Shown: positions 1 to 38,699 of the stretch, piece after piece | Layout: each line of letters opens with the position of its first letter | Position numbering within the stretch: position 1 is the stretch's first letter | DNA from: Odiellus spinosus | Lineage: Eukaryota > Arthropoda > Arachnida > Opiliones > Phalangiidae | Length of the DNA: 64,000 bases | Direction of reading: 5' to 3' | Assembly (NCBI GenBank): GCA_963920705.1 | Contig: OY987234.1 | Location: 62,001-126,000, forward strand | Translations under genes and position numbers: made by a program | The notes under the pieces: generated by a model | Told to the model about the DNA's origin: nothing | Database searches by the model: none | The model's input: only the letters and a program-made list of their open reading frames with translations

Positions 1-69
1 TTGTGGATCTACACTTGGGAAATTTGTGGATCTGCACTTGTGAAATTTGTGGATCTGAACTTGGGAAAT

Positions 70-7122: not shown

Positions 7123-8900
7123 GATTATCTGCACTTGGGAAATTTGTGGATGTGCACTTGGGAAATTTTTGGATCTGCACTTGGGAACTTTGTGGATCTG
7201 CCCTTGGGAAAAATGTGGATCTGCACTTGGAAAATTTGTGGATCTGCACTTGGGAAATTTGTGGATCTGCACTTGGGAAATTTGCGGATCTGCACTTGGG
7301 AAATTTGTGGATATGCACTTGGGAAAATTGTGGATCTGCACTTGGGAAATTTTTGGATCTGCACTTGGGAAATTTGTGGATCTGCACTTGGGAAATTTGT
7401 GGATCTGCACTTGGGAAATTTTTGGATCTGCACTTGGGAAATTTGTGGATCTGCACTTGGGAAATTTGTGGATCTACACTTGGGAAATTTGTGGATATGC
7501 ACTTGGGAAAATTGTGGATCTGCACTTGGGAAATTTGTGGATCTGCACTTGGGAAATTTGTGGATCTGCACTTGGGAAATTTTTGGATCTGCACTTGGGA
7601 AATTTGTGGATCTGCACTTGGGAAATTTGTGGATCTACATTTGGGAAATTTGTGGATCTACACTTGGGAAATTTGTGGATCTACACTTGTGAAATTTGTG
7701 GATCTGCACTTGGGAAATTTGTGGATCTACAATTGGGAAATTTGTGGATCTACATTTGGGAAATTTATGGATCTACACTTGGGAAATTTGTGGATATACA
7801 CTTGGGAAATTTGTGGATCTGCACATGGGAAATTTGTGGATCTACATTTGGGAAATTTGTGGATCTACACTTGGGAAATTTGTGGATCTACACTTGGGAA
7901 ATTTGTGGATCTGAACTTGGGAAATTTGTGGATCTGCACTTGGGAAATTTTTGGATCTGCACTTGGGAAATTTGTGGATCTGCACTTGGGAAATTTGTGG
8001 ATCTGCACTTGGGAAATTTTTGGATCTGCACTTGGGAAATTTGTGGATCTGCACTTGGGAACTTTGTGGATCTGCACTTGGGAAAATTGTGGATCTGCAC
8101 TTGGGAAATTTGTGGATCTGCACTTGGGAAATTTGTGGATCTGCACTTGGGAAATTTGTGGATCTGCACTTGGGAAATTTGTGGATCTGCACTTGGGAAA
8201 TTTGTGGATCTGCACTTGGGAAATTTGTGGATCTGCACTTGGGAAATTTGGATTCGCACTTGGGAAATTTGTGGATCTACACTTAGGAAATTTGTGGATC
8301 TACACTTGGGAAATTTTCGGATCTATACTTGGGAAATTTGAGGATCTGCACTTGGGAAATTTTTGGATCTGCCCTTGAGAAAGTTGTGGATCTGCACTTG
8401 GGAAATTTGTGGATCTGCACATGGGAAATTTGTGGATCTACATTTGGGAAATTTTTGGATCTACACTTGGGAAATTTGTGAATCTACACTTGGGAAATTT
8501 GTGGATCTGCACTTGGGAAATTTGTGGATCTACACTTGGGAAATTTGTGGATCTACACTTGGGAAATTTGTGGATCTGCACTTGGGAAATTTGTGGATCT
8601 ACACTTGGGAAATTTGTGGATCTGCACTTGGGAAATTTGTGGATCTGCACTTGGGAAATTTGTGGATATACACTTGGGAAATTTGTGGATCTGCACTTGG
8701 GAAATTTGTGTATCTGCACTTGGGAAATTTGTGGATCTACACTTGGGAAATTTGTGGATCTGCATTTGGGAAATTTGTGGATCTACACTTGGGAAATTTG
8801 TGGATCTACACTTGGGAAATTTGTGGATCTACACTTGGAAAATTTGTGGATCTGCACTTGTGAAATTTGTGGATCTGAACTTGGGAAATTTGTGGATCTG
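7123..8900 (+). repeat. Isolated further copy of the 1.5-kb type, transitional to domain II
   Basis: The block 7.7-8.36 kb repeats the order seen at about 1.64-2.30 kb: GTGAAAT, CTACAATT, CTACATT, ATATACAC, ACATGGG, CTGAAC, G3T monomers, the A22C and T23A pair, the short monomer at 8250 and cassette B at 8318. Offset is 6,062 bp for the part before the short monomer. Upstream, cassette A at 7123 carries the CCCTTGGGAAAAATG allele at 7198, the last I saw before 40 kb. Downstream the GTGTATCTGC variant (G6T) appears near 8709 and then becomes common in domain II. Cassette B here has a private CCCTTGAGAAAG third monomer. Confidence 0.7.
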
Positions 8901-10110
8901 CACTTGGGAAATTTGTGGATCTACACTTGGGAAATTTGATTATCTGCACTTGGGAAATTTGTGGATGTGCACTTGGGAAATTTGTGGATCTGCACTTGGG
9001 AACTTTGTGGATCTGCACTTGGGAAAATTGTGGATCTGCACTTGGGAAATTTGTGGATCTGCACTTGGGAAATTTTTGGATCTGCACTTGGGAAATTTGT
9101 GGATCTGCACTTGGGAAATTTGTGGATCTGCACTTGGGAACTTTGTGGATCTGCACTTGGGAAAATTGTGGATCTGCACTTGGGAAATTTGTGGATCTGC
9201 ACTTGGGAAATTTGTGGATCTGCACTTGGGAAATTTGTGGATCTGCACTTGGGAAATTTGTGGATCTGCACTTGGGAAATTTGTGGATCTGCACTTGGGA
9301 AATTTGTGGATCTGCACTTGGGAAATTTGTGGATCTGCACTTGGGAAATTTGTGGATCTGCACTTGGGAAATTTGTGGATCTGCACTTGGGAAATTTGTG
9401 GATCTGCACTTGGGAAATTTGGATTCGCACTTGGGAAATTTGTGGATCTACACTTGGGAAATTTGTGGATCTACACTTGGGAAATTTTCGGATCTATACT
9501 TGGGAAATTTGAGGATCTGCACTTGGGAAATTTTTGGATCTGCCCTTGGGAAAGTTGTGTATCTGCACTTGGGAAATTTGTGGATCTGCACATGGGAAAT
9601 TTGTGGATCTACATTTGGGAAATTTGTGGATCTACACTTGGGAAATTTGTGAATCTACACTTGGGAAATTTGTGGCTCTGCACTTGGGAAATTTGTGGAT
9701 CTACACTTGGGAAATTTGTGGATCTACACTTGGGAAATTTGTGGATCTGCACTTGGGAAATTTGTGGATCTACACTTGGGAAATTTGTGGATCTGCACTT
9801 GGGAAATTTGTGGATCTGCACTTGGGAAATTTGTGGATATTAACTTGGGAAATTTGTGGATCTGCACTTGGGAAATTTGTGTATCTGCACTTGGGAAATT
9901 TGTGGATCTACACTTGGGAAATTTGTGGATCTGCATTTGGGAAATTTGTGGATCTACACTTGGGAAATTTGTGGATCTACACTTGGGAAATTTGTGGATC
10001 TACACTTGGGAAATTTGTGGATCTGCACTTGTGAAATTTGTGGATCTGAACTTGGGAAATTTGTGGATCTGCACTTGGGAAATTTGTGGATCTACACTTG
10101 GGAAATTTGA
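8330..10110 (+). repeat. 1,171-bp repeat, two copies
   Basis: Short monomers at 8250 and 9421, cassettes B at 8318 and 9489, and cassettes A at 8938 and 10109 are each 1,171 bp apart (51 monomers minus the 2 bp of one short monomer). Variant order between the anchors agrees: ACATGGG, CTACATT, GTGAATC, alternating G/A at position 11, GATATACAC or GATATTAAC, GTGTATC, CTGCATT, GTGAAAT and CTGAAC. Differences include GATATACAC at about 8665 against GATATTAAC at about 9837, and the third cassette B monomer. Confidence 0.75.
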
Positions 10111-12690
10111 TTATCTGCACTTGGGAAATTTGTGGATGTGCACTTGGGAAATTTGTGGATCTGAACTTGGGAACTTTGTGGATCTGCACTTGGGAAAATT
10201 GTGGATCTGCACTTGGGAAATTTGTGGATCTGCACTTGGGAAATTTGTGGATCTGAACTTGGGAAATTTGTGGATCTGCACTTGGGAAATTTGTGGATCT
10301 ACACTTGGGAAATTTGATTATCTGCACTTGGGAAATTTGTGGATGTGCACTTGGGAAATTTGTGGATCTGCACTTGGAAACTTTGTGGATCTGCACTTGG
10401 GAAAATTGTGGATCTGCACTTGGGAAATTTGTGGATCTGCACTTGGGAAATTTGTGGATCTGCACTTGGGAAATTTTTGGATCTGCACTTGTGAAATTTG
10501 TGGATCTGCACTTGTTAAATTTGTGGATATGCACATGGGAAATTTGTGGATCTACATTTGGGAAATTTGTGGATCTACACTTGGGAAATTTTTGGATCTA
10601 CACTTGGGAAATTTGTGGATCTGCACTTGGGAAATTTGTGGATCTACACTTGGGAAATTTGTGGATCTACATTTGGGAAATTTGTGGATCTACACTTGGG
10701 AAATTTGTGGATCTACACTTGGGAAATTTGTGGATCTGCACATGGGAAATTTGTGGATCTACATTTGGGAAATTTGTGGATCTACACTTGGGAAATTTGT
10801 GGATCTACACTTGGGAAATTTGTGGATCTGCACTTGGGAAATTTGTGGATCTACACTTGGGAAATTTGTGGATCCGCACTTGGGAAATTTGTGGATCTGC
10901 ACTTGGGAACTTTGTGGATCTGCACTTGGGAAAATTGTGGATCTGCATTTGGGAAATTTGTGGATCTGCACTTGGGAAATTTTTGGATCTGCACTTGGGA
11001 AATTTGTGGATCTGCACTTGGGAAATTTGTGGATCTGCACTTGGGAAATTTTTGGATCTGCACTTGGGAAATTTGTGGATCTGCACTTGGGAACTTTGTG
11101 GATCTGCACTTGGGAAAATTGTGGATCTGCACTTGGGAAATTTGTGGATCTGCACTTGGGAAATTTGTGGATCTGCACTTGGGAAATTTGTGGATCTACA
11201 CTTGGGAAATTTGTGGATCTACACTTGGGAAATTTGTGGATCTGCACTTGGGAAATTTGTGGATCTACACTTGGGAAATTTGTGGATCTGCACTTGGGAA
11301 ATTTGTGGATCTGCACTTGGGAAATTTGTGGATATTAACTTGGGAAATTTGTGGATCTGCACTTGGGAAATTTGTGTATCTGCACTTGGGAAATTTGTGG
11401 ATCTACACTTGGGAAATTTGTGGATCTGCATTTGGGAAATTTGTGGATCTACACTTGGGAAATTTGTGGATCTACACTTGGGAAATTTGTGGATCTACAC
11501 TTGGGAAATTTGTGGATCTGCACTTGTGAAATTTGTGGATCTGAACTTGGGAAATTTGTGGATCTGCACTTGGGAAATTTGTGGATCTACACTTGGGAAA
11601 TTTGATTATCTGCACTTGGGAAATTTGTGGATGTGCACTTGGGAAATTTGTGGATCTGAACTTGGGAACTTTGTGGATCTGCACTTGGGAAAATTGTGGA
11701 TCTGCACTTGGGAAATTTGTGGATCTGCACTTGGGAAATTTGTGGATCTGAACTTGGGAAATTTGTGGATCTGCACTTGGGAAATTTGTGGATCTACACT
11801 TGGGAAATTTGATTATCTGCACTTGGGAAATTTGTGGATGTGCACTTGGGAAATTTGTGGATCTGCACTTGGAAACTTTGTGGATCTGCACTTGGGAAAA
11901 TTGTGGATCTGCACTTGGGAAATTTGTGGATCTGCACTTGGGAAATTTGTGGATCTGCACTTGGGAAATTTTTGGATCTGCACTTGTGAAATTTGTGGAT
12001 CTGCACTTGTTAAATTTGTGGATATGCACATGGGAAATTTGTGGATCTACATTTGGGAAATTTGTGGATCTACACTTGGGAAATTTTTGGATCTACACTT
12101 GGGAAATTTGTGGATCTGCACTTGGGAAATTTGTGGATCTACACTTGGGAAATTTGTGGATCTACATTTGGGAAATTTGTGGATCTACACTTGGGAAATT
12201 TGTGGATCTACACTTGGGAAATTTGTGGATCTGCACATGGGAAATTTGTGGATCTACATTTGGGAAATTTGTGGATCTACACTTGGGAAATTTGTGGATC
12301 TACACTTGGGAAATTTGTGGATCTGCACTTGGGAAATTTGTGGATCTACACTTGGGAAATTTGTGGATCCGCACTTGGGAAATTTGTGGATCTGCACTTG
12401 GGAACTTTGTGGATCTGCACTTGGGAAAATTGTGGATCTGCATTTGGGAAATTTGTGGATCTGCACTTGGGAAATTTTTGGATCTGCACTTGGGAAATTT
12501 GTGGATCTGCACTTGGGAAATTTGTGGATCTGCACTTGGGAAATTTTTGGATCTGCACTTGGGAAATTTGTGGATCTGCACTTGGGAACTTTGTGGATCT
12601 GCACTTGGGAAAATTGTGGATCTGCACTTGGGAAATTTGTGGATCTGCACTTGGGAAATTTGTGGATCTGCACTTGGGAAATTTGTGGAT
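9690..12690 (+). repeat. 1,495-bp tandem duplication (65 monomers)
   Basis: Cassettes A at 10109 and 10316 recur at 11604 and 11811, exactly 1,495 bp (65 x 23) away. Rare variants travel with them at the same offset: GATATTAAC (9837 and 11332), GTTAAAT (near 10512 and 12008), GATCCGCAC (near 10871 and 12366) and GGAAACTTTG (near 10376 and 11871). No internal length change was needed to align them. The copies look almost identical by eye, suggesting a recent event. Confidence 0.85.
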
Positions 12691-12849
12691 CTGCACTTGG
12701 GAAATTTGTGGATCTGCACTTGGGAAATTTGTGGATCTGCACTTGGGAAATTTGTGGATCTGCACTTGGGAAATTTGTGGATCTGCACTTGGGAAATTTG
12801 TGGATCTGCACTTGGGAAATTTGTGGATCTGCACTTGGGAAATTTGTGG

Positions 12850-13280
12850 ATCTGCACTTGGGAAATTTGGATTCGCACTTGGGAAATTTGTGGATCTACA
12901 CTTGGGAAATTTGTGGATCTGCACTTGGGAAATTTGTGGATCTACACTTGGGAAATTTGTGGATCTGCACTTGGGAAATTTGTGGATCTGCACTTGGGAA
13001 ATTTGTGGATATACACTTGGGAAATTTGTGGATCTGCACATGGGAAATTTGTGTATCTGCACTTGGGAAATTTGTGGATCTACACTTGGGAAATTTGTGG
13101 ATCTGCATTTGGGAAATTTGTGGATCTACACTTGGGAAATTTGTGGATCTACACTTGGGAAATTTGTGGATCTACACTTGGAAAATTTGTGGATCTGCAC
13201 TTGTGAAATTTGTGGATCTGAACTTGGGAAATTTGTGGATCTGCACTTGGGAAATTTGTGGATCTACACTTGGGAAATTT
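12850..13280 (+). repeat. Chimeric HOR junction: short monomer without cassette B
   Basis: The short monomer at 12869 is the only one of 22 not followed 68 bp later by CGGATCTATAC. After two CTACAC monomers the sequence continues with the alternating G/A block, GATATACAC, ACATGGG and GTGTATC that normally lies several hundred bases beyond cassette B. Cassette B and its downstream monomers are thus missing and the flanks are joined in register. Cassette A follows normally at 13281. This looks like an internal deletion by unequal exchange between HOR units. Confidence 0.75.
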
Positions 13281-14609
13281 GATTATCTGCACTTGGGAAA
13301 TTTGTGGATGTGCACTTGGGAAATTTGTGGATCTGCACTTGGGAACTTTGTGGATCTGCACTTGGGAAAATTGTGGATCTGCACTTGGGAAATTTGTGGA
13401 TCTGCACTTGGGAAATTTTTGGATCTGCACTTGGGAAATTTGTGGATCTGCACTTGGGAAATTTGTGGATCTGCACTTGGGAACTTTGTGGATCTGCACT
13501 TGGGAAATTTGTGGATCTGCACTTGGGAAATTTGTGGATCTGCACTTGGGAAATTTGTGGATCTGCACTTGGGAAATTTGTGGATCTGCACTTGGGAAAT
13601 TTGTGGATCTGCACTTGGGAAATTTGTGGATCTGCACTTGGGAAATTTGTGGATCTGCACTTGGGAAATTTGTGGATCTGCACTTGGGAAATTTGTGGAT
13701 CTGCACTTGGGAAATTTGTGGATCTGCACTTGGGAAATTTGTGGATCTGCACTTGGGAAATTTGGATTCGCACTTGGGAAATTTGTGGATCTACACTTGG
13801 GAAATTTGTGGATCTACACTTGGGAAATTTTCGGATCTATACTTGGGAAATTTGAGGATCTGCACTTGGGAAATTTTTGGATCTGCCCTTGGGAAAGTTG
13901 TGTATCTGCACTTGGGAAATTTGTGGATCTGCACATGGGAAATTTGTGGATCTACATTTGGGAAATTTGTGGATCTACACTTGGGAAATTTGTGAATCTA
14001 CACTTGGGAAATTTGTGGATCTGCACTTGGGAAATTTGTGGATCTACACTTGGGAAATTTGTGGATCTACACTTGGGAAATTTGTGGATCTGCACTTGGG
14101 AAATTTGTGGATCTACACTTGGGAAATTTGTGGATCTGCACTTGGGAAATTTGTGGATCTGCACTTGGGAAATTTGTGGATATACACTTGGGAAATTTGT
14201 GGATCTGCACTTGGGAAATTTGTGTATCTGCACTTGGGAAATTTGTGGATCTACACTTGGGAAATTTGTGGATCTGCATTTGGGAAATTTGTGGATCTAC
14301 ACTTGGGAAATTTGTGGATCTACACTTGGGAAATTTGTGGATCTACACTTGGGAAATTTGTGGATCTGCACTTGTGAAATTTGTGGATCTGAACTTGGGA
14401 AATTTGTGGATCTGCACTTGGGAAATTTGTGGATCTACACTTGGGAAATTTGATTATCTGCACTTGGGAAATTTGTGGATGTGCACTTGGGAAATTTGTG
14501 GATCTGCACTTGGGAACTTTGTGGATCTGCACTTGGGAAAATTGTGGATCTGCACTTGGGAAATTTGTGGATCTGAACTTGGGAAATTTGTGGATCTGCA
14601 CTTGGGAAA

Positions 14610-17600
14610 TTTGTGGATCTACACTTGGGAAATTTGATTATCTGCACTTGGGAAATTTGTGGATGTGCACTTGGGAAATTTGTGGATCTGCACTTGGAAA
14701 CTTTGTGGATCTGCACTTGGGAAAATTGTGGATCTGCACTTGGGAAATTTGTGGATCTGCACTTGGGAAATTTGTGGATCTGCACTTGGGAAATTTTTGG
14801 ATCTGCACTTGTGAAATTTGTGGATCTGCACTTGTTAAATTTGTGGATATGCACATGGGAAATTTGTGGATCTACATTTGGGAAATTTGTGGATCTACAC
14901 TTGGGAAATTTTTGGATCTACACTTGGGAAATTTGTGGATCTGCACTTGGGAAATTTGTGGATCTACACTTGGGAAATTTGTGGATCTACATTTGGGAAA
15001 TTTGTGGATCTACACTTGGGAAATTTGTGGATCTACACTTGGGAAATTTGTGGATCTGCACATGGGAAATTTGTGGATCTACATTTGGGAAATTTGTGGA
15101 TCTACACTTGGGAAATTTGTGGATCTACACTTGGGAAATTTGTGGATCTGCACTTGGGAAATTTGTGGATCTACACTTGGGAAATTTGTGGATCCGCACT
15201 TGGGAAATTTGTGGATCTGCACTTGGGAACTTTGTGGATCTGCACTTGGGAAAATTGTGGATCTGCATTTGGGAAATTTGTGGATCTGCACTTGGGAAAT
15301 TTTTGGATCTGCACTTGGGAAATTTGTGGATCTGCACTTGGGAAATTTGTGGATCTGCACTTGGGAAATTTTTGGATCTGCACTTGGGAAATTTGTGGAT
15401 CTGCACTTGGGAACTTTGTGGATCTGCACTTGGGAAATTTGTGGATATACACTTGGGAAATTTGTGGATCTGCACTTGGGAAATTTGTGTATCTGCACTT
15501 GGGAAATTTGTGGATCTACACTTGGGAAATTTGTGGATCTGCATTTGGGAAATTTGTGGATCTACACTTGGGAAATTTGTGGATCTACACTTGGGAAATT
15601 TGTGGATCTACACTTGGAAAATTTGTGGATCTGCACTTGTGAAATTTGTGGATCTGAACTTGGGAAATTTGTGGATCTGCACTTGGGAAATTTGTGGATC
15701 TACACTTGGGAAATTTGATTATCTGCACTTGGGAAATTTGTGGATGTGCACTTGGGAAATTTGTGGATCTGCACTTGGGAACTTTGTGGATCTGCACTTG
15801 GGAAAATTGTGGATCTGCACTTGGGAAATTTGTGGATCTGCACTTGGGAAATTTTTGGATCTGCACTTGGGAAATTTGTGGATCTGCACTTGGGAAATTT
15901 GTGGATCTGCACTTGGGAACTTTGTGGATCTGCACTTGGGAAAATTGTGGATCTGCACTTGGGAAATTTGTGGATCTGCACTTGGGAAATTTGTGGATCT
16001 GCACTTGGGAAATTTGTGGATCTGCACTTGGGAAATTTGTGGATCTGCACTTGGGAAATTTGTGGATCTGCACTTGGGAAATTTGTGGATCTGCACTTGG
16101 GAAATTTGTGGATCTGCACTTGGGAAATTTGTGGATCTGCACTTGGGAAATTTGTGGATCTGCACTTGGGAAATTTGTGGATCTGCACTTGGGAAATTTG
16201 GATTCGCACTTGGGAAATTTGTGGATCTACACTTGGGAAATTTGTGGATCTACACTTGGGAAATTTTCGGATCTATACTTGGGAAATTTGAGGATCTGCA
16301 CTTGGGAAATTTTTGGATCTGCCCTTGGGAAAGTTGTGTATCTGCACTTGGGAAATTTGTGGATCTGCACATGGGAAATTTGTGGATCTACATTTGGGAA
16401 ATTTGTGGATCTACACTTGGGAAATTTGTGAATCTACACTTGGGAAATTTGTGGATCTGCACTTGGGAAATTTGTGGATCTACACTTGGGAAATTTGTGG
16501 ATCTACACTTGGTAAATTTGTGGATCTGCACTTGGGAAATTTGTGGATCTACACTTGGGAAATTTGTGGATCTGCACTTGGGAAATTTGTGGATCTGCAC
16601 TTGGGAAATTTGTGGATATACACTTGGGAAATTTGTGGATCTGCACTTGGGAAATTTGTGTATCTGCACTTGGGAAATTTGTGGATCTACACTTGGGAAA
16701 TTTGTGGATCTGCATTTGGGAAATTTGTGGATCTACACTTGGGAAATTTGTGGATCTACACTTGGGAAATTTGTGGATCTACACTTGGGAAATTTGTGGA
16801 TCTGCACTTGTGAAATTTGTGGATCTGAACTTGGGAAATTTGTGGATCTGCACTTGGGAAATTTGTGGATCTACACTTGGGAAATTTGATTATCTGCACT
16901 TGGGAAATTTGTGGATGTGCACTTGGGAAATTTGTGGATCTGCACTTGGGAACTTTGTGGATCTGCACTTGGGAAAATTGTGGATCTGCACTTGGGAAAT
17001 TTGTGGATCTGCACTTGGGAAATTTGTGGATCTGAACTTGGGAAATTTGTGGATCTGCACTTGGGAAATTTGTGGATCTACACTTGGGAAATTTGATTAT
17101 CTGCACTTGGGAAATTTGTGGATGTGCACTTGGGAAATTTGTGGATCTGCACTTGGAAACTTTGTGGATCTGCACTTGGGAAAATTGTGGATCTGCACTT
17201 GGGAAATTTGTGGATCTGCACTTGGGAAATTTGTGGATCTGCACTTGGGAAATTTTTGGATCTGCACTTGTGAAATTTGTGGATCTGCACTTGTTAAATT
17301 TGTGGATATGCACATGGGAAATTTGTGGATCTACATTTGGGAAATTTGTGGATCTACACTTGGGAAATTTTTGGATCTACACTTGGGAAATTTGTGGATC
17401 TGCACTTGGGAAATTTGTGGATCTACACTTGGGAAATTTGTGGATCTACATTTGGGAAATTTGTGGATCTACACTTGGGAAATTTGTGGATCTACACTTG
17501 GGAAATTTGTGGATCTGCACATGGGAAATTTGTGGATCTACATTTGGGAAATTTGTGGATCTACACTTGGGAAATTTGTGGATCTACACTTGGGAAATTT

Positions 17601-19800
17601 GTGGATCTGCACTTGGGAAATTTGTGGATCTACACTTGGGAAATTTGTGGATCCGCACTTGGGAAATTTGTGGATCTGCACTTGGGAACTTTGTGGATCT
17701 GCACTTGGGAAAATTGTGGATCTGCATTTGGGAAATTTGTGGATCTGCACTTGGGAAATTTTTGGATCTGCACTTGCGAAATTTGTGGATCTGCACTTGG
17801 GAAATTTGTGGATCTGCACTTGGGAAATTTTTGGATCTGCACTTGGGAAATTTGTGTATCTGCACTTGGGAACTTTGTGGATCTGCACTTGGGAAAATTG
17901 TGGATCTGCACTTGGGAAATTTGTGGATCTGCACTTGGGAAATTTGTGGATCTGCACTTGGGAAATTTGTGGATCTGCACTTGGGAAATTTGTGGATCTG
18001 CACTTGGGAAATTTGTGGATCTGCACTTGGGAAATTTGTGGATCTGCACTTGGGAAATTTGTGGATCTGCACTTGGGAAAATTGTGGATCTGCACTTGGG
18101 AAATTTGTGGATCTGCACTTGGGAAATTTGTGGATCTGCACTTGGGAAATTTTTGGATCTGCACTTGTGAAATTTGTGGATCTGCACTTGTTAAATTTGT
18201 GGATATGCACATGGGAAATTTGTGGATCTACATTTGGGAAATTTGTGGATCTACACTTGGGAAATTTTTGGATCTACACTTGGGAAATTTGTGGATCTGC
18301 ACTTGGGAAATTTGTGGATCTACACTTGGGAAATTTGTGGATCTACATTTGGGAAATTTGTGGATCTACACTTGGGAAATTTGTGGATCTACACTTGGGA
18401 AATTTGTGGATCTGCACATGGGAAATTTGTGGATCTACATTTGGGAAATTTGTGGATCTACACTTGGGAAATTTGTGGATCTACACTTGGGAAATTTGTG
18501 GATCTGCACTTGGGAAATTTGTGGATCTACACTTGGGAAATTTGTGGATCCGCACTTGGGAAATTTGTGGATCTGCACTTGGGAACTTTGTGGATCTGCA
18601 CTTGGGAAAATTGTGGATCTGCATTTGGGAAATTTGTGGATCTGCACTTGGGAAATTTTTGGATCTGCACTTGGGAAATTTGTGGATCTGCACTTGGGAA
18701 ATTTGTGGATCTGCACTTGGGAAATTTTTGGATCTGCACTTGGGAAATTTGTGGATCTGCACTTGGGAACTTTGTGGATCTGCACTTGGGAAATTTGTGG
18801 ATATACACTTGGGAAATTTGTGGATCTGCACTTGGGAAATTTGTGTATCTGCACTTGGGAAATTTGTGGATCTACACTTGGGAAATTTGTGGATCTGTAT
18901 TTGGGAAATTTGTGGATCTACACTTGGGAAATTTGTGGATCTACACTTGGGAAATTTGTGGATCTACACTTGGAAAATTTGTGGATCTGCACTTGTGAAA
19001 TTTGTGGATCTGAACTTGGGAAATTTGTGGATCTGCACTTGGGAAATTTGTGGATCTACACTTGGGAAATTTGATTATCTGCACTTGGGAAATTTGTGGA
19101 TGTGCACTTGGGAAATTTGTGGATCTGCACTTGGGAACTTTGTGGATCTGCACTTGGGAAAATTGTGGATCTGCACTTGGGAAATTTGTGGATCTGCACT
19201 TGGGAAATTTTTGGATCTGCACTTGGGAAATTTGTGGATCTGCACTTGGGAAATTTGTGGATCTGCACTTGGGAACTTTGTGGATCTGCACTTGGGAAAA
19301 TTGTGGATCTGCACTTGGGAAATTTGTGGATCTGCACTTGGGAAATTTGTGGATCTGCACTTGGGAAATTTGTGGATCTGCACTTGGGAAATTTGTGGAT
19401 CTGCACTTGGGAAATTTGTGGATCTGCACTTGGGAAATTTGTGGATCTGCACTTGGGAAATTTGTGGATCTGCACTTGGGAAATTTGTGGATCTGCACTT
19501 GGGAAATTTGTGGATCTGCACTTGGGAAATTTGGATTCGCACTTGGGAAATTTGTGGATCTACACTTGGGAAATTTGTGGATCTACACTTGGGAAATTTT
19601 CGGATCTATACTTGGGAAATTTGAGGATCTGCACTTGGGAAATTTTTGGATCTGCCCTTGGGAAAGTTGTGTATCTGCACTTGGGAAATTTGTGGATCTG
19701 CACATGGGAAATTTGTGGATCTACATTTGGGAAATTTGTGGATCTGCACTTGGGAAATTTGTGGATCTACACTTGGGAAATTTGTGGATCTACACTTGGG
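14610..19800 (+). repeat. 3,356-bp long-period duplication (146 monomers minus 2)
   Basis: Blocks starting near 14.8 kb recur near 18.2 kb. Cassettes A at 15717 and 19073, short monomers at 16200 and 19533 (3,333, one monomer less) and cassettes B at 16268 and 19601 mark the alignment. The offset is 3,356 bp between about 14.8 and 16.1 kb, then 3,333 bp after one monomer difference. The 2-bp remainder is the one short monomer in the interval. GTTAAAT variants near 14833 and 18188 and GATCCGCAC near 15191 and 18547 also correspond. Confidence 0.75.
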
Positions 19801-21240: not shown

Positions 21241-21249
21241 GCACTTGGG

Positions 21250-23760: not shown

Positions 23761-24749
23761 TGGATCTGCACTTGGGAAATTTGTGGATCTGCACTTGGGA
23801 AATTTGTGGATCTGCACTTGGGAAATTTGTGGATCTGCACTTGGGAAATTTGTGGATCTGCACTTGGGAAATTTGTGGATCTGCACTTGGGAAATTTGTG
23901 GATCTGCACTTGGGAAATTTGTGGATCTGCACTTGGGAAATTTGTGGATCTGCACTTGGGAAATTTGTGGATCTGCACTTGGGAAATTTGTGGATCTGCA
24001 CTTGGGAAATTTGGATTCGCACTTGGGAAATTTGTGGATCTACACTTGGGAAATTTGTGGATCTACACTTGGGAAATTTTCGGATCTATACTTGGGAAAT
24101 TTGAGGATCTGCACTTGGGAAATTTTTGGATCTGCCCTTGGGAAAGTTGTGTATCTGCACTTGGGAAATTTGTGGATCTGCACATGGGAAATTTGTGGAT
24201 CTACACTTGGGAAATTTGTGAATCTACACTTGGGAAATTTGTGGATCTGCACTTGGGAAATTTGTGGATCTACACTTGGGAAATTTGTGGATCTACACTT
24301 GGGAAATTTGTGGATCTGCACTTGGGAAATTTGTGGATCTACACTTGGGAAATTTGTGGATCTGCACTTGGGAAATTTGTGGATCTGCACTTGGGAAATT
24401 TGTGGATATACACTTGGGAAAATTGTGGATCTGCACTTGGGAAATTTGTGGATCTACACTTGGGAAATTTGTGAATCTACACTTGGGAAATTTGTGGATC
24501 TGCACTTGGGAAATTTGTGGATCTACACTTGGGAAATTTGTGGATCTACACTTGGGAAATTTGTGGATCTGCACTTGGGAAATTTGTGGATCTACACTTG
24601 GGAAATTTGTGGATCTGCACTTGGGAAATTTGTGGATCTGCACTTGGGAAATTTGTGGATCTGCACTTGGGAAATTTTTGGATCTGCACTTGGGAAATTT
24701 GTGTATCTGCACTTGGGAAATTTGTGGATCTACACTTGGGAAATTTGTG

Positions 24750-27700: not shown

Positions 27701-30700
27701 GGAAATTTGTGGATCTGCACTTGGGAAATTTGTGGATCTGCACTTGGGAAATTTGTGGATCTGCACTTGGGAAATTTGTGGATCTGCACTTGGGAAATTT
27801 GGATTCGCACTTGGGAAATTTGTGGATCTACACTTGGGAAATTTGTGGATCTACACTTGGGAAATTTTCGGATCTATACTTGGGAAATTTGAGGATCTGC
27901 ACTTGGGAAATTTTTGGATCTGCCCTTGGGAAAGTTGTGTATCTGCACTTGGGAAATTTGTGGATCTGCACATGGGAAATTTGTGGATCTACACTTGGGA
28001 AATTTGTGAATCTACACTTGGGAAATTTGTGGATCTGCACTTGGGAAATTTGTGGATCTACACTTGGGAAATTTGTGGATCTACACTTGGGAAATTTGTG
28101 GATCTGCACTTGGGAAATTTGTGGATCTACACTTGGGAAATTTGTGGATCTGCACTTGGGAAATTTGTGGATCTGCACTTGGGAAATTTGTGGATATACA
28201 CTTGGGAAAATTGTGGATCTGCACTTGGGAAATTTGTGGATCTGCACTTGGGAAATTTGTGGATCTGCACTTGGGAAATTTGTGGATCTGCACTTGGGAA
28301 ATTTGTGGATCTGCACTTGGGAAATTTGTGGATCTGCACTTGGGAAATTTGTGGATCTGCACTTGGGAAATTTGGATTCGCTCTTGGGAAATTTGTGGAT
28401 CTACACTTGGGAAATTTGTGGACCTACACTTGGGAAATTTTCGGATCTATACTTGGGAAATTTGAGGATCTGCACTTGGGAAATTTTTGGATCTGCCCTT
28501 GGGAAAGTTGTGGATCTGCACTTGGGAAATTTGTGGATCTGCACATGGGAAATTTGTGGATCTACATTTGGGAAATTTGTGGATCTACACTTGGGAAATT
28601 TGTGAATCTACACTTGGGAAATTTGTGGATCTGCACTTGGGAAATTTGTGGATCTACACTTGGGAAATTTGTGGATCTACACTTGGGAAATTTGTGGATC
28701 TGCACTTGGGAAATTTGTGGATCTACACTTGGGAAATTTGTGGATCTGCACTTGGGAAATTTGTGGATCTGCACTTGGGAAATTTGTGGATATACACTTG
28801 GGAAATTTGTGGATCTGCACTTGGGAAATTTGTGTATCTGCACTTGGGAAATTTGTGGATCTACACTTGGGAAATTTGTGGATCTGCATTTGGGAAATTT
28901 GTGGATCTACACTTGGGAAATTTGTGGATCTACACTTGGGAAATTTGTGGATCTACACTTGGGAAATTTGTGGATCTGCACTTGTGAAATTTGTGGATCT
29001 GAACTTGGGAAATTTGTGGATCTGCACTTGGGAAATTTGTGGATCTACACTTGGGAAATTTGATTATCTGCACTTGGGAAATTTGTGGATGTGCACTTGG
29101 GAAATTTGTGGATCTGCACTTGGGAACTTTGTGGATCTGCACTTGGGAAAATTGTGGATCTGCACTTGGGAAATTTGTGGATCTGCACTTGGGAAATTTT
29201 TGGATCTGCACTTGGGAAATTTGTGGATCTGCACTTGGGAAATTTGTGGATCTGCACTTGGGAAATTTTTGGATCTGCACTTGGGAAATTTGTGGATCTG
29301 CACTTGGGAACTTTGTGGATCTGCACTTGGGAAAATTGTGGATCTGCACTTGGGAAATTTGTGGATCTGCACTTGGGAAATTTGTGGATCTGCACTTGGG
29401 AAATTTGTGGATCTGCACTTGGGAAATTTGTGGATCTGCACTTGGGAAATTTGTGGATCTGCACTTGGGAAATTTGTGGATCTGCACTTGGGAAATTTGT
29501 GGATCTGCACTTGGGAAATTTGTGGATCTGCACTTGGGAAATTTGTGGATCTGCACTTGGGAAATTTGTGGATCTGCACTTGGGAAATTTGGATTCGCAC
29601 TTGGGAAATTTGTGGATCTACACTTGGGAAATTTGTGGATCTACACTTGGGAAATTTTCGGATCTATACTTGGGAAATTTGAGGATCTGCACTTGGGAAA
29701 TTTTTGGATCTGCCCTTGGGAAAGTTGTGTATCTGCACTTGGGAAATTTGTGGATCTGCACATGGGAAATTTGTGGATCTACATTTGGGAAATTTGTGGA
29801 TCTACACTTGGGAAATTTGTGAATCTACACTTGGGAAATTTGTGGATCTGCACTTGGGAAATTTGTGGATCTACACTTGGGAAATTTGTGGATCTACACT
29901 TGGGAAATTTGTGGATCTGCACTTGGGAAATTTGTGGATCTACACTTGGGAAATTTGTGGATCTGCACTTGGGAAATTTGTGGATCTGCACTTGGGAAAT
30001 TTGTGGATATACACTTGGGAAATTTGTGGATCTGCACTTGGGAAATTTGTGTATCTGCACTTGGGAAATTTGTGGATCTACACTTGGGAAATTTGTGGAT
30101 CTGCATTTGGGAAATTTGTGGATCTACACTTGGGAAATTTGTGGATCTACACTTGGGAAATTTGTGGATCTACACTTGGGAAATTTATGGATCTGCACTT
30201 GTGAAATTTGTGGATCTGAACTTGGGAAATTTGTGGATCTACACTTGGGAAATTTGATTATCTGCACTTGGGAAATTTGTGGATGTGTACTTGGGAAATT
30301 TGTGGATCTGCACTTGGGAACTTTGTGGATCTGCACTTGGGAAAATTGTGGATCTGCACTTGGGAAATTTGTGGATCTGCACTTGGGAAATTTGTGGATC
30401 TGAACTTGGGAAATTTGTGGATCTGCACTTGGGAAATTTGTGGATCTACACTTGGGAAATTTGATTATCTGCACTTGGGAAATTTGTGGATGTGCACTTG
30501 GGAAATTTGTGGATCTGCACTTGGGAACTTTGTGGATCTGCACTTGGGAAAATTGTGGATCTGCACTTGGGAAATTTGTGGATCTGCACTTGGGAAATTT
30601 GTGGATCTGCACTTGGGAAATTTTTGGATCTGCACTTGTGAAATTTGTGGATCTGCACTTGTTAAATTTGTGGATATGCACATGCGAAATTTGTGGATCT

Positions 30701-31480
30701 ACATTTGGGAAATTTGTGGATCTACACTTGGGAAATTTTTGGATCTACACTTGGGAAATTTGTGGATCTGCACTTGGGAAATTTGTGGATCTACACTTGG
30801 GAAATTTGTGGATCTACATTTGGGAAATTTGTAGATCTACACTTGGGAAATTTGTGGATCTACACTTGGGAAATTTGTGGATCTGCACATGGGAAATTTG
30901 TGGATCTACATTTGGGAAATTTGTGGATCTACACTTGGGAAATTTGTGGATCTACACTTGGGAAATCTGTGGATCTGCACTTGGGAAATTTGTGGATCTG
31001 CACTTGGGAAATTTGTGGATCTGCACTTGGGAAATTTGTGGATCTGCACTTGGGAAATTTGTGGATCTGCACTTGGGAAATTTGGATTCGCACTTGGGAA
31101 ATTTGTGGATCTACACTTGGGAAATTTGTGGATCTACACTTGGGAAATTTTCGGATCTATACTTGGGAAATTTGAGGATCTGCACTTGGGAAATTTTTGG
31201 ATCTGCCCTTGGGAAAGTTGTGTATCTGCACTTGGGAAATTTGTGGATCTGCACATGGGAAATTTGTGGATCTACATTTGGGAAATTTGTGGATCTACAC
31301 TTGGGAAATTTGTGAATCTACACTTGGGAAATTTGTGGATCTGCACTTGGGAAATTTGTGGATCTACACTTGGGAAATTTGTGGATCTACACTTGGGAAA
31401 TTTGTGGATCTGCACTTGGGAAATTTGTGGATCTACACTTGGGAAATTTGTGGATCTGCACTTGGGAAATTTGTGGATCT
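24750..31480 (+). repeat. 4.1-kb direct duplication, copies about 24.75-27.36 and 28.88-31.47 kb
   Basis: Short monomers at 25482 and 26975 recur at 29591 and 31084, and cassettes A at 26147 and 26354 recur at 30256 and 30463, all exactly 4,109 bp apart (179 monomers minus 8 bp for four short monomers). Cassette A at 24931 and 29062 is 4,131 bp apart because copy 1 holds one extra 22-bp monomer near 25290. Shared rare variants are GATGTGTAC (near 26173 and 30282), TTGTAGATC (near 26721 and 30830) and GGGAAATCTG (near 26856 and 30965). Between the copies lie compressed units with short monomers at 27801 and 28374. Confidence 0.8.
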
Positions 31481-32139
31481 GCACTTGGGAAATTTGTGGA
31501 TATACACTTGGGAAATTTGTGGATCTGCACTTGGGAAATTTGTGGATCTACACTTGGGAAATTTGTGGATCTGCATTTGGGAAATTTGTGGATCTACACT
31601 TGGGAAATTTGTTGATCTACACTTGGGAAATTTGTGGATCTACACTTGGGAAATTTGTGGATCTGCACTTGTGAAATTTGTGGATCTGAACTTGGGAAAT
31701 TTGTGGATCTGCACTTGGGAAATTTGTGGATCTACACTTGGGAAATTTGATTATCTGCACTTGGGAAATTTGTGGATGTGCTCTTGGGAAATTTGTGGAT
31801 CTGCACTTGGGAACTTTGTGGATCTGCACTTGGGAAAATTGTGGATCTGCACTTGGGAAATTTGTGGATCTGCACTTGGGAAATTTGTGGATCTGAACTT
31901 GGGAAATTTGTGGATCTGCATTGGGAAATTTGTGGATCTACACTTGGGAAATTTGATTATCTGCACTTGGGAAATTTGTGGATGTGCACTTGGGAAATTT
32001 GTGGATCTGCACTTGGGAACTTTGTGGATCTGCACTTGGGAAAATTGTGGATCTGCACTTGGGAAATTTGTGGATCTGCACTTGGGAAATTTGTGGATCT
32101 GCACTTGGGAAATTTTTGGATCTGCACTTGTGAAATTTG

Positions 32140-33190
32140 TGGATCTGCACATGGGAAATTTGTGGATCTACATTTGGGAAATTTGTGGATCTACACTTGG
32201 GAAATTTTTGGATCTACACTTGGGAAATTTGTGGATCTGCACTTGGGAAATTTGTGGATCTACACTTGGGAAATTTGTGGATCTACATTTGGGAAATTTG
32301 TGGATCTACACTTGGGAAATTTGTGGATCTACACTTGGGAAATTTGTGGATCTGCACATGGGAAATTTGTGGATCTACATTTGGGAAATTTGTGGATCTA
32401 CACTTGGGAAATTTGTGTATCTACACTTGGGAAATTTGTGGATCTGCACTTGGGAAATTTGTGGATCTACACTTGGGAAATTTGTGGATCTGCACTTGGG
32501 AAATTTGTGGATCTGCACTTGGGAACTTTGTGTATCTGCACTTGGGAAAATTGTGGATCTGCATTTGGGAAATTTGTGGATCTGCACTTGGGAAATTTGT
32601 GGATCTGCACTTGGGAAATTTGTGGATCTGCACTTGGGAAATTTTTGGATCTGAACTTGGGAAATTTGTGGATATGCACTTGGGAAATTTGTGGATCTGC
32701 ACTTGGGAAATTTTTGGATCTGCACTTGGGAAATTTGTGGATCTGCACTTGGGAAATTTGTGGATCTACACTTGGGAAATTTGTGGATCTACACTTGGGA
32801 AATTTTCGGATCTATACTTGGGAAATTTGAGGATCTGCACTTGGGAAATTTTTGGATCTGCTTTTGGGAAAGTTGTGGATCTGCACTTGGGACATTTGTG
32901 GATCTACATTTGGGAAATTTGTGGATCTACACTTGGGAAATTTGTGGATCTACACTTGGGAAATTTGTGGATCTACACTTGGCAAATTTGTGGATCTACA
33001 TTTGGGAAATTTGTGGATCTACACTTCTGAAATTTGTGGATCTACACTTGGGAAATTTGTGGATCTGCACATGGGAAATTTGTGGATCTACACTTGGGAA
33101 ATTTGTGGATCGACACTTGGGAAATTTGTGGATCTGCACTTGGGAAATTTGTGGATCTACGCTTGGGAAATTTGTGGATCTGCACTTGGG
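32140..33190 (+). repeat. Block X, copy 2
   Basis: Same variant order as copy 1: CTTTT cassette B at 32807, TTGGGACATTT near 32890, CTTCTGAAAT near 33026, GATCGACAC near 33111 and CTACGCTTGG near 33160. The offset from copy 1 is 9,368 bp at the left and 9,437 bp at the right, so this copy is three monomers longer. The extra length lies around 32540-32600. One monomer near 32985 has a private TTGGCAAAT. The 22-bp CTGCATTGGG monomer near 31919, just upstream, also has its counterpart near 22551 upstream of copy 1, so the shared segment starts before the block. Confidence 0.75.
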
Positions 33191-33469
33191 AAAATTGTGG
33201 ATCTGCACTTGGGAAATTTGTGGATCTGCACTTGGGAAATTTGTGGATCTGCACTTGGGAAATTTGTGGATCTGCACTTGGGAAATTTGTGGATCTGCAC
33301 TTGGGAAATTTGTGGATCTGCACTTGGGAAATTTGTGGATCTGCACTTGGGAAATTTGTGGATCTGCACTTGGGAAATTTGTGGATCTGCACTTTTGAAA
33401 TTTGTGGATCTGCACTTGGGAAATTTGTGGATCTGCACTTGGGAAATTTGTGGATCTGCACTTGGGAAA

Positions 33470-36400
33470 TTTGGATTCGCACTTGGGAAATTTGTGGATC
33501 TACACTTGGGAAATTTGTGGATCTACACTTGGGAAATTTTCGGATCTATACTTGGGAAATTTGAGGATCTGCACTTGGGAAATTTTTGGATCTGCCCTTG
33601 GGAAAGTTGTGTATCTGCACTTGGGAAATTTGTGGATCTGCACATGGGAAATTTGTGGATCTACACTTGGGAAATTTGTGAATCTACACTTGGGAAATTT
33701 GTGGATCTGCACTTGGGAAATTTGTGGATCTACACTTGGGAAATTTGTGGATCTACACTTAGGAAATTTGTGGATCTGCACTTGGGAAATTTGTGGATCT
33801 ACACTTGGGAAATTTGTGGATCTGCACTTGGGAAATTTGTGGATCTGCACTTGGGAAATTTGTGGATATACACTTGGGAAATTTGTGGATCTGCACTTGG
33901 GAAATTTGTGTATCTGCACTTGGGAAATTTGTGGATCTACACTTGGGAAATTTGTGGATCTGCATTTGGGAAATTTGTGGATCTACACTTGGGAAATTTG
34001 TGGATCTACACTTGGGAAATTTGTGGATCTACACTTGGGAAATTTGTGGATCTGCACTTGTGAAATTTGTGGATCTGAACTTGGGAAATTTGTGGATCTG
34101 CACTTGGGAAATTTGGATTCGCACTTGGGAAATTTGTGGATCTACACTTGGGAAATTTGTGGATCTACACTTGGGAAATTTTCGGATCTATACTTGGGAA
34201 ATTTGAGGATCTGCACTTGGGAAATTTTTGGATCTGCCCTTGGGAAAGTTGTGTATCTGCACTTGGGAAATTTGTGGATCTGCACATGGGAAATTTGTGG
34301 ATCTACACTTGGGAAATTTGTGAATCTACACTTGGGAAATTTGTGGATCTGCACTTGTGAAATTTGTGGATCTACACTTGGGAAATTTGTGGATCTGCAC
34401 TTGGGAAATTTGTGGATCTACACTTGGGAAATTTGTGGATCTGCACTTGGGAAATTTGTGGATCTGCACTTGGGAAATTTGTGGATATACACTTGGGAAA
34501 TTTGTGGATCTGCACTTGGGAAATTTGTGTATCTGCACTTGGGAAATTTGTGGATCTACACTTGGGAAATTTGTGGATCTGCATTTGGGAAATTTGTGGA
34601 TCTACACTTGGGAAATTTGTGGATCTACACTTGGGAAATTTGTGGATCTACACTTGGGAAATTTGTGGATCTGCACTTGTGAAATTTGTGGATCTGAACT
34701 TGGGAAATTTGTGGATCTGCACTTGGGAAATTTGGATTCGCACTTGGGAAATTTGTGGATCTACACTTGGGAAATTTGTGGATCTACACTTGGGAAATTT
34801 TCGGATCTATACTTGGGAAATTTGAGGATCTGCACTTGGGAAATTTTTGGATCTGCCCTTGGGAAAGTTGTGTATCTGCACTTGGGAAATTTGTGGATCT
34901 GCACATGGGAAATTTGTGGATCTACACTTGGGAAATTTGTGAATCTACACTTGGGAAATTTGTGGATCTGCACTTGGGAAATTTGTGGATCTACACTTGG
35001 GAAATTTGTGGATCTACACTTGGGAAATTTGTGGATCTGCACTTGGGAAATTTGTGGATCTACACTTGGGAAATTTGTGGATCTGCACTTGGGAAATTTG
35101 TGGATCTGCACTTGGGAAATTTGTGGATATACACTTGGGAAATTTGTGGATCTGCACTTGGGAAATTTGTGTATCTGCACTTGGGAAATTTGTGGATCTA
35201 CACTTGGGAAATTTGTGGATCTGCATTTGGGAAATTTGTGGATCTACACTTGGGAAATTTGTGGATCTACACTTGGGAAATTTGTGGATCTACACTTGGG
35301 AAATTTGTGGATCTGCACTTGTGAAATTTGTGGATCTGAACTTGGGAAATTTGTGGATCTGCACTTGGGAAATTTGTGGATCTACACTTGGGAAATTTGA
35401 TTATCTGCACTTGGGAAATTTGTGGATGTGCACTTGGGAAATTTGTGGATCTGCACTTGGGAACTTTGTGGATCTGCACTTGGGAAAATTGTGGATCTGC
35501 ACTTGGGAAATTTGTGGATCTGCACTTGGGAAATTTGTGGATCTGAACTTGGGAAATTTGTGGATCTGCACTTGGGAAATTTGTGGATCTACACTTGGGA
35601 AATTTGATTATCTGCACTTGGGAAATTTGTGGATGTGCACTTGGGAAATTTGTGGATCTGCACATGGGAAATTTGTGGATCTACATTTGGGAAATTTGTG
35701 GATCTACACTTGGGAAATTTTTGGATCTACACTTGGGAAATTTGTGGATCTGCACTTGGGAAATTTGTGGATCTACACTTGGGAAATTTGTGGATCTACA
35801 TTTGGGAAATTTGTGGATCTACACTTGGGAAATTTGTGGATCTACACTTGGGAAATTTGTGGATCTGCACATGGGAAATTTGTGGATCTACATTTGGGAA
35901 ATTTGTGGATCTACACTTGGGAAATTTGTGTATCTACACTTGGGAAATTTGTGGATCTGCACTTGGGAAATTTGTGGATCTACACTTGGGAAATTTGTGG
36001 ATCTGCACTTGGGAAATTTGTGGATCTGCACTTGGGAACTTTGTGTATCTGCACTTGGGAAAATTGTGGATCTGCATTTGGGAAATTTGTGGATCTGCAC
36101 TTGGGAAATTTGTGGATCTGCACTTGGGAAATTTGTGGATCTGCACTTGGGAAATTTTTGGATCTGAACTTGGGAAATTTGTGGATATGCACTTGGGAAA
36201 TTTGTGGATCTGCACTTGGGAAATTTTTGGATCTGCACTTGGGAAATTTGTGGATCTGCACTTGGGAAATTTGTGGATCTACACTTGGGAAATTTGTGGA
36301 TCTACACTTGGGAAATTTTCGGATCTATACTTGGGAAATTTGAGGATCTGCACTTGGGAAATTTTTGGATCTGCTTTTGGGAAAGTTGTGGATCTGCACT

Positions 36401-38490
36401 TGGGACATTTGTGGATCTACATTTGGGAAATTTGTGGATCTACACTTGGGAAATTTGTGGATCTACACTTGGGAAATTTGTGGATCTACACTTGGCAAAT
36501 TTGTGGATCTACATTTGGGAAATTTGTGGATCTACACTTCTGAAATTTGTGGATCTACACTTGGGAAATTTGTGGATCTGCACATGGGAAATTTGTGGAT
36601 CTACACTTGGGAAATTTGTGGATCGACACTTGGGAAATTTGTGGATCTGCACTTGGGAAATTTGTGGATCTACGCTTGGGAAATTTGTGGATCTGCACTT
36701 GGGAAAATTGTGGATCTGCACTTGGGAAATTTGTGGATCTGCACTTGGGAAATTTGTGGATCTGCACTTGGGAAATTTGTGGATCTGCACTTGGGAAATT
36801 TGTGGATCTGCACTTGGGAAATTTGTGGATCTGCACTTGGGAAATTTGTGGATCTGCACTTGGGAAATTTGTGGATCTGCACTTGGGAAATTTGTGGATC
36901 TGCACTTTTGAAATTTGTGGATCTGCACTTGGGAAATTTGTGGATCTGCACTTGGGAAATTTGTGGATCTGCACTTGGGAAATTTGGATTCGCACTTGGG
37001 AAATTTGTGGATCTACACTTGGGAAATTTGTGGATCTACACTTGGGAAATTTTCGGATCTATACTTGGGAAATTTGAGGATCTGCACTTGGGAAATTTTT
37101 GGATCTGCCCTTGGGAAAGTTGTGTATCTGCACTTGGGAAATTTGTGGATCTGCACATGGGAAATTTGTGGATCTACACTTGGGAAATTTGTGAATCTAC
37201 ACTTGGGAAATTTGTGGATCTGCACTTGGGAAATTTGTGGATCTACACTTGGGAAATTTGTGGATCTACACTTGGGAAATTTGTGGATCTGCACTTGGGA
37301 AATTTGTGGATCTACACTTGGGAAATTTGTGGATCTGCACTTGGGAAATTTGTGGATATACACTTGGGAAATTTGTGGATCTGCACTTGGGAAATTTGTG
37401 TATCTGCACTTGGGAAATTTGTGGATCTACACTTGGGAAATTTGTGGATCTGCATTTGGGAAATTTGTGGATCTACACTTGGGAAATTTGTGGATCTACA
37501 CTTGGGAAATTTGTGGATCTACACTTGGGAAATTTGTGGATCTGCACTTGTGAAATTTGTGGATCTGAACTTGGGAAATTTGTGGATCTGCACTTGGGAA
37601 ATTTGGATTCGCACTTGGGAAATTTGTGGATCTACACTTGGGAAATTTGTGGATCTACACTTGGGAAATTTTCGGATCTATACTTGGGAAATTTGAGGAT
37701 CTGCACTTGGGAAATTTTTGGATCTGCCCTTGGGAAAGTTGTGTATCTGCACTTGGGAAATTTGTGGATCTGCACATGGGAAATTTGTGGATCTACACTT
37801 GGGAAATTTGTGAATCTACACTTGGGAAATTTGTGGATCTGCACTTGGGAAATTTGTGGATCTACACTTGGGAAATTTGTGGATCTACACTTGGGAAATT
37901 TGTGGATCTGCACTTGGGAAATTTGTGGATCTACACTTGGGAAATTTGTGGATCTGCACTTGGGAAATTTGTGGATCTGCACTTGGGAAATTTGTGGATA
38001 TACACTTGGGAAATTTGTGGATCTGCACTTGGGAAATTTGTGTATCTGCACTTGGGAAATTTGTGGATCTACACTTGGGAAATTTGTGGATCTGCATTTG
38101 GGAAATTTGTGGATCTACACTTGGGAAATTTGTGGATCTACACTTGGGAAATTTGTGGATCTACACTTGGGAAATTTGTGGATCTGCACTTGTGAAATTT
38201 GTGGATCTGAACTTGGGAAATTTGTGGATCTGCACTTGGGAAATTTGTGGATCTACACTTGGGAAATTTGATTATCTGCACTTGGGAAATTTGTGGATGT
38301 GCACTTGGGAAATTTGTGGATCTGCACTTGGGAACTTTGTGGATCTGCACTTGGGAAAATTGTGGATCTGCACTTGGGAAATTTGTGGATCTGCACTTGG
38401 GAAATTTGTGGATCTGAACTTGGGAAATTTGTGGATCTGCACTTGGGAAATTTGTGGATCTACACTTGGGAAATTTGATTATCTGCACTT
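33470..38490 (+). repeat. 619-bp repeats within a 3.5/2.9-kb duplication
   Basis: Short monomers at 34115 and 34734 are 619 bp apart (27 monomers minus 2), as are 36986 and 37605; 33473 to 34115 is 642, one monomer more. Each unit holds the short monomer, cassette B, ACATGGG, GTGAATC, an alternating G/A block, GATATACAC, GTGTATC, CTGCATT, GTGAAAT and CTGAAC, and then returns to the next short monomer with no cassette A. The whole segment is duplicated: 33541 matches 37054 (3,513 bp), and 34734-35606 matches 37605-38477 (2,871 bp). One fewer 619-bp unit in the second copy accounts for most of the change in offset. Confidence 0.8.
35650..36700 (+). repeat. Block X, copy 3
   Basis: Aligned with copy 2 at a constant 3,513 bp: cassettes B at 32807 and 36320 and GATCGACAC near 33111 and 36624. 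TTGGCAAAT is shared, near 32985 and 36495, which groups copies 2 and 3 against copy 1. The 3,513 bp equals 153 monomers minus 6, matching three short monomers in the interval (33473, 34115, 34734). At the left edge, cassette A (35606) passes from GATGTGC straight into the ACATGGG monomer, skipping about eight monomers present at 31955, which marks a junction. Confidence 0.75.
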
Positions 38491-38699
38491 GGGAAATTTG
38501 TGGATGTGCACTTGGGAAATTTGTGGATCTGCACTTGGGAACTTTGTGGATCTGCACTTGGGAAAATTGTGGATCTGCACTTGGGAAATTTGTGGATCTG
38601 CACTTGGGAAATTTGTGGATCTGCACTTGGGAAATTTTTGGATCTGCACTTGGGAAATTTGTGGATCTGCACTTGTTAAATTTGTGGATATGCACATGT

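What the first reader, a model, noticed from the sequence alone, without database searches (positions are those of the whole stretch)
8900..38600. Domain II looks like a younger amplification inserted into an older array
Two independent variants, CCCTTGGGAAAAATG and CTACAATT, occur on both sides (up to 7.7 kb, and from 40.3 kb) but I found neither between about 8 and 40 kb. In that interval cassettes A become doublets and the short monomer is amplified. Shared flanks around a distinct core is what layered expansion would give. Alternatives are gene conversion homogenising the core or loss of the variants there.
Basis: inference. Interest (0 to 1): 0.7.

Follow-up and report, generated by a model that had tools for sequence, protein, structure and literature searches.

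The report
Local growth inside a satellite array
The middle of this 64-kb stretch of 23-base tandem repeats looks like a recent local multiplication of part of a larger repeat unit whose fuller form lies on its left, which is ordinary satellite-DNA growth rather than a young core set into one older array.

Summary
The window is wholly one 23-bp satellite (2,785 monomers, one orientation) with a higher-order unit of up to 128 monomers. They are not independent: both lie in one segment of the unit (positions 99 to 9, about 0.9 kb), which as a whole is missing from the core. Core II consists (95%) of repeated copies of positions 10-79, spread in 23-bp register in blocks of up to 2.7 kb. It does look like a localised, fairly recent amplification: uniform-turnover simulations reached such a gap in 5 of 1,140 runs, local-burst runs in 228 of 1,800. 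But the flanks are not one older layer. Left flank I shares 38 long collinear blocks with II and 2 with III (rims left out), though window by window half of I is nearer to II and half, more remotely, to III. III is the most diverged. II is itself uneven, probably three sub-amplifications. Best reading: II grew from I-type units beside an older relative, III; a hybrid origin of I is not excluded. Organism and function are unknown; the process is a known kind.

The parts
1..64000 (+). One uninterrupted 23-bp satellite array, consensus TTGTGGATCTGCACTTGGGAAAT, 2,785 monomers; both window ends lie inside it
   Evidence: TRF: 2785.0 copies, 92% matches; 2,726 of 2,785 monomers are 23 bp, none shorter than 21
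1..9050 (+). Domain I: carries the fullest higher-order unit, both marker variants and the 22-bp pair; 7,972-9,050 is a II-like transition
4754..7695 (+). Higher-order unit of 128 monomers (2,942 bp) from one CTACAATT monomer block to the next, used as reference; the only full-length passage found
7029..7925 (+). One copy of the segment (reference 99 to 9) that holds both marker variants and is missing from the core
9051..38865 (+). Domain II core: 95% of monomers thread to reference 10-79; 0.2% to the 99-9 segment, against 28% in I and 27% in III
   Evidence: 0-4.8% in II over 15 parameter settings
9051..21999 (+). Sub-block IIa, the most homogeneous part (mean 2.3 mismatches per 460 bp to the nearest copy in the sub-block)
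22000..31799 (+). Sub-block IIb, mixed (5.4 within itself, 7.3 to IIa)
31800..38865 (+). Sub-block IIc (3.7 within itself, 13.0 to I)
32137..38520 (+). Recent tandem duplication: 32,137-35,649 followed by a second copy from 35,650; 1 mismatch in the first 74 monomers, 4 in a later 68; second copy about 28 monomers shorter
38406..38819 (+). Right rim of II: nearest relative is in domain I (1 mismatch in 414 bp to the window starting at 47), but II copies follow at 2-3
38866..64000 (+). Domain III: more diverged, own arrangement; both marker variants present, no GGATTCG 22-bp monomer

Best explanation
The array is an ordinary satellite in which runs of whole 23-bp monomers are tandemly duplicated and deleted by misaligned homologous exchange (unequal crossing-over or break-induced replication). 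Domain I carries the fullest higher-order unit. Domain II arose next to and out of I-type units: a part of the unit (positions 10-79) was multiplied again and again, probably in at least three sub-bursts, while the segment 99-9 was left behind or deleted. Both marker variants went with that one segment. Domain III is an older or less often renewed domain of related units. Shown: single-segment absence, recurrent junctions, in-register blocks, many more and closer shared blocks for I-II than for I-III, greater divergence of III. Inferred: direction I to II, the exchange mechanism, relative ages.
For: None of the II monomers (7,972-38,600) threads to reference 99-127 or 0-7. II has 75 threading junctions of 31 kinds; 56-48 recurs nine times, 56-12 four, 79-10 four (42-42, ten times, is a one-monomer insertion). 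Collinear duplicates reach 117 monomers (2.7 kb) at 0.41%. Perfect 460-bp duplicates cover 85% of II, 13% of III, 40% of I. Blocks of 25 or more monomers: I-II 51, I-III 2, II-III 7, II-II 115, III-III 28, I-I 7 with bounds 9,051/38,866; I-II 41 and I-III 2 with 7,972/38,600; 38 and 2 with rims left out. I-II divergence is below I-III in all four segments that the three share, with all three sets of bounds (e.g. rims out: 1.03 v 3.60, 1.12 v 2.64, 2.67 v 3.63, 1.22 v 2.07%) and in all four tree segments. Uniform-turnover simulations reach the observed gap in 1 of 240 and 4 of 900; local-burst runs in 228 of 1,800.
Against: Window by window, I is nearer to II in 166 and to III in 166 of 339 cases, 7 ties, and best partners outside I are shared about equally (77 II, 78 III). 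In three of five stretches of the reference unit the best III match beats the best II match: 99-127 (11.9 v 15.2 mismatches per 460 bp), 5,856-6,560 (7.8 v 8.1), 6,592-7,006 (7.6 v 20.5). Twenty of 109 words are shared by I and III but not II; 5 of 140 rotations of the bounds reach that, the unrotated one included. In segment 57-79 II-III is as close as I-II (2.69 v 2.67%). III largely lacks positions 10-23, so its high divergence at 10-47 is partly forced threading. 8.9-kb windows at 17.5-28.5 kb inside II (means 7.7 and 9.0) are as uneven as I and the better III windows. Trees are poorly resolved. Nearness of I and II may be mere neighbourhood. I is cut by the window and has 1-5 copies per segment. 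With a III unit as reference up to 8 II monomers per position fall on the segment's counterpart.
Confidence: 0.6

Rival explanations
1. Layered expansion: I and III are one older array, split by a younger amplification II.
For: Shared 99-9 segment in I and III, absent from II; 20 of 109 two-monomer words with that pattern; greater overall homogeneity of II than of III; half of I's windows are nearer to III; the right rim of II is nearest to an I unit.
Against: The shared marks are mostly one linked segment (17 of 20 words). I is closer on average to II than to III in all four shared segments and shares 38-51 v 2 collinear blocks. I's coverage by perfect duplicates, 0.40, is nearer the size-matched mean of II (0.54; range 0.13-0.93) than that of III (0.16; range 0-0.41), though inside both ranges.
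Confidence: 0.15
2. Domain I is a hybrid made by exchange between a II-type array and a III-type array, so its full unit is not ancestral.
For: I's unit is close to the union of II-type and III-type parts; its 99-127 and 80-98 parts are nearest to III, its 10-47 part to II; equal shares of windows nearer to II and to III.
Against: The monomer order of I across 88-109 also occurs in III at 39,901-40,406, so it need not be a new join; no single switch point is seen.
Confidence: 0.25
3. Gene conversion homogenised the core and erased the two variants.
For: High identity among II copies.
Against: The absence is of a whole 0.9-kb segment, not of single bases. II copies share junctions and collinear blocks of 1-2.7 kb, longer than the tracts a review gives for conversion (mostly under 500 bp in humans, about 125 bp in Arabidopsis centromeres; PMC12321929, passages). 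I ran no direct test for conversion tracts.
Confidence: 0.08
4. Assembly artefact: collapsed or multiplied repeats.
For: Near-perfect multi-kb tandem copies are prone to misassembly; the source and its reads are not held.
Against: Many copies differ by private variants and indels, and the three domains differ in structure.
Confidence: 0.05

Closest known systems
Layered (nested) expansion of human alpha-satellite higher-order repeats, as described in PMC12321929 (passages seen)
   Same: Homogeneous inner higher-order repeat beside more diverged relatives
   Different: Only one side (III) is clearly more diverged; the left side shares most long blocks with the core. Kinetochore occupancy is unknown. 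Scale is tens of kb
In-frame gain and loss of whole centromere monomers (1-31) from adjacent sequence in Arabidopsis lines (Dong et al. 2025, as summarised in PMC12321929, passage)
   Same: Whole-monomer, in-register blocks copied locally
   Different: Monomer is 23 bp, not 178; blocks here reach 117 monomers; no pedigree
23-bp Chio holocentromere satellite of Chionographis japonica (PMC12722358, passages)
   Same: Monomer length
   Different: Its 9-bp TTCGTACGA is absent here even with one mismatch
Equid 2PI satellite, 23-bp repeat (PMC9024551, passages)
   Same: Monomer length
   Different: Sequence not given in the passages seen; not compared

Membership tests
Higher-order-repeat satellite | Multi-monomer units whose copies are far more alike than the monomers within a unit | tested here: met
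   Blocks of 25 or more monomers, picked for likeness, are 0-2.1% apart, position-matched copies within a domain 0.4-3.3%; monomers at large 7.0-7.8%. Only one full 128-monomer passage was found
Layered expansion | Inner array more homogeneous than its surroundings | tested here: inconclusive
   Clear against III as a whole (0.85 v 0.13), not against I once size-matched; the 17-28 kb part of II is not more homogeneous
Layered expansion | The two flanks are more alike than either is to the core | tested here: not met
   I-II closer on average than I-III in all four shared segments; 38-51 v 2 blocks; but windows of I split 166 to 166
Layered expansion (centromeric) | CENP-A/CENH3 on the inner array | not testable with these tools
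   No organism, no chromatin data
Local in-register satellite turnover | Rearrangements keep monomer phase | tested here: met
   165 threading junctions but no monomer shorter than 21 bp among 2,785
Chio satellite | TTCGTACGA in the monomer | tested here: not met
   0 matches with up to one mismatch
Equid 2PI satellite | Monomer sequence | not tested
   Its sequence was not in the passages seen; the window's monomer forms are in no held paper as unbroken strings

The most novel reading that the evidence does not exclude
A 23-bp satellite carries a true higher-order unit of about 113-128 monomers, and II is the freshly expanding, possibly kinetochore-linked part of a centromeric array that grows one-sidedly from one rim rather than from the middle outward.
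Probability: 0.1. Interest if true: 0.55.

Novelty: new member of a known kind. Interest (0 to 1): 0.3.

Why it matters
It is a compact, readable case in which a satellite domain can be traced to the multiplication of part of a neighbouring higher-order unit, with breakpoints in monomer register. It also shows that 'variants on both flanks but not in the core' need not mean that the flanks are one older layer: a single missing segment does it.

Tried and rejected
Mean monomer divergence does not separate the domains (7.0-7.8%). Threading on a III-type unit was tried and is worse, because that unit lacks the 10-47 block. Open reading frames of up to 1,386 aa exist but follow from a stop-poor repeat and are taken as meaningless. 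A hairpin in six monomers is not unusual (z -1.52, 19 of 200 shuffles as good).

Source: no match in genome contigs, viral contigs or phages (one 1-kb query, with a low-complexity filter that may hide repeats). No held paper prints six short forms of the monomer or a 20-base form as unbroken strings. Chio was considered and dropped. The bovine 1.706 satellite, recalled from memory as 23-bp based, gave no paper in a four-term search.

Limits: domain bounds differ between calls (8,900/38,600; 7,972/38,600; 9,051/38,866; all three kinds compared, where 143 of 2,785 monomers were dropped in the version without rims). Rows with too little coverage (under 60-85% of the segment) were dropped from the trees, and duplicate pairs under 25 monomers from the pair counts. 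The simulations start from a perfect 128-monomer array, ignore point changes, and were compared on one statistic chosen after seeing the data.

On checking this report against the calls I found that the count of 51 I-II blocks included the II-like transition at 7,972-9,050; one search recounts it (41 or 38). The same check brought in that I's windows split evenly between II and III, for which I lowered the best explanation from 0.7 to 0.6 and raised the hybrid rival from 0.2 to 0.25.

Full report
What is there. The whole window is a single 23-bp satellite, 2,785 copies at 92% matches, in one orientation. 2,726 monomers are exactly 23 bp, the others 21-24 bp. Written as a string of monomer types it shows a higher-order organisation. 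The reference unit, 4,754-7,695, has 128 monomers and is the only full-length passage; the array can be threaded along it with 165 junctions. A III-type counterpart has 113 monomers.

The observation. Both variants are distributed as stated. Threading shows why: they sit in one segment of the unit, reference 99 to 9. None of the II monomers threads to positions 99-127 or 0-7 (bounds 7,972-38,600); with bounds 9,051-38,865 the share on 99-9 is 0.2%, against 28% in I and 27% in III. Over 15 parameter settings the share in II is 0-4.8%, the top value at the stiffest setting. Of the 109 two-monomer words with three or more copies, 20 are in I and III but not II, 12 in I and II but not III, 7 in II and III but not I. 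Seventeen of the 20 lie in the 99-9 segment. So the two variants count as one mark, and marks such as GGATTCG (4, 18, 0) and CCCTTGGGAAAG (3, 17, 0) tie I to II instead.

Is II younger? By nearest copy anywhere over 460 bp, the mean is 2.2 mismatches in II, 4.5 in I and 7.4 in III. Coverage by perfect 460-bp duplicates is 85%, 40% and 13%. But I is small and cut by the window: 15 windows of its size give 0.13-0.93 (mean 0.54) in II and 0-0.41 (mean 0.16) in III, so I (0.40) is inside both ranges and nearer the mean of II. The closest duplicate blocks are about equally young: 0.08% in I, 0.00% in II, 0.09% in III. II is uneven: 8.9-kb windows over 8.7-22 kb have means of 2.0-2.6, those over 17.5-28.5 kb 7.7-9.0, like I (7.5) and the better III windows (from 8.3). 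By position in the unit, divergence within II is below III in four of four segments, above I in two of three; on the tree rows II is above III in one of four, because of the rare subfamily.

Do I and III belong together? On balance no. Mean I-II divergence is below I-III in all four segments that the three share, with three sets of bounds. Collinear blocks of 25 or more monomers number 38-51 for I-II by bounds, 2 for I-III and 6-7 for II-III. With rims left out, 83 of 339 windows of I lie within 5 mismatches of II and 23 within 5 of III; yet 166 are nearer to II and 166 to III. So I is a mosaic: part is a recent relative of II, part an older relative of III. The four segment trees are weakly resolved and never put I with III apart from II with support; in one, two of three I rows are identical with eleven II rows while the third falls weakly with III, and in another the single I row groups (80/87) with two II rows and the III copy at 39,901. 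Neighbourhood alone could explain part of the I-II likeness.

How II was built. II junctions recur and blocks of up to 2.7 kb are copied with them, for example 32,137-35,649 and its second copy from 35,650. II can be divided into three sub-blocks: 9-22 kb is homogeneous, 22-31.8 kb mixed, 31.8-38.9 kb has its own copies; distance to I rises along them (7.2, 9.6, 13.0 mismatches per 460 bp). I set these bounds by eye. The right rim, 38,406-38,819, is nearest to a domain I unit, 1 mismatch in 414 bp, against 2-3 for II copies; the difference is one or two bases, so this is a hint that I-type sequence stands on both sides of II.

Chance. In simulations of duplication and deletion with equal rates along the array, a gap in a 36-position segment as long as that observed (1,407 monomers) arose in 1 of 240 runs and 4 of 900. 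With half or more of the events drawn to one inherited stretch it arose in 228 of 1,800. This favours a local burst, within the limits of a simple model.

Comparison. A review describes human alpha-satellite arrays as nested layers with the youngest unit in the centre, and Arabidopsis centromere changes as in-frame gains and losses of whole monomers, with insertions from adjacent sequence (PMC12321929, passages seen). The second fits; the first fits only on the right side. The organism is unknown: the own-genome search could not be reached and collections gave no match. That the source is a eukaryote is inference from the kind of repeat.

Noticed in passing
22,700-23,760; 32,068-33,220; 35,650-36,730; 38,900-40,100: A rare subfamily with GCTTTTGGGAAAG and GATCGACAC monomers occurs three times in II and twice just right of it (GATCGACAC also once in I), a link between II and the rim of III.
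   Followed up: partly
window 41,765-42,155 and 47,372-47,800: Domain III has a partial doublet of the GATTATC cassette (GHED..HED), so doubling there may be older than, or independent of, that in II.
   Followed up: no
whole window: Because 23 is not a multiple of 3 and the consensus lacks stops, long open frames (up to 1,386 aa) appear; they are a by-product of the repeat.
   Followed up: partly
59,700-62,900: The 1-kb bin at 60 kb is the farthest from I and II (21.8 and 21.3 mismatches per 460 bp); the stretch has own repeats of roughly 0.8-1.3 kb and threads poorly to the reference unit.
   Followed up: no
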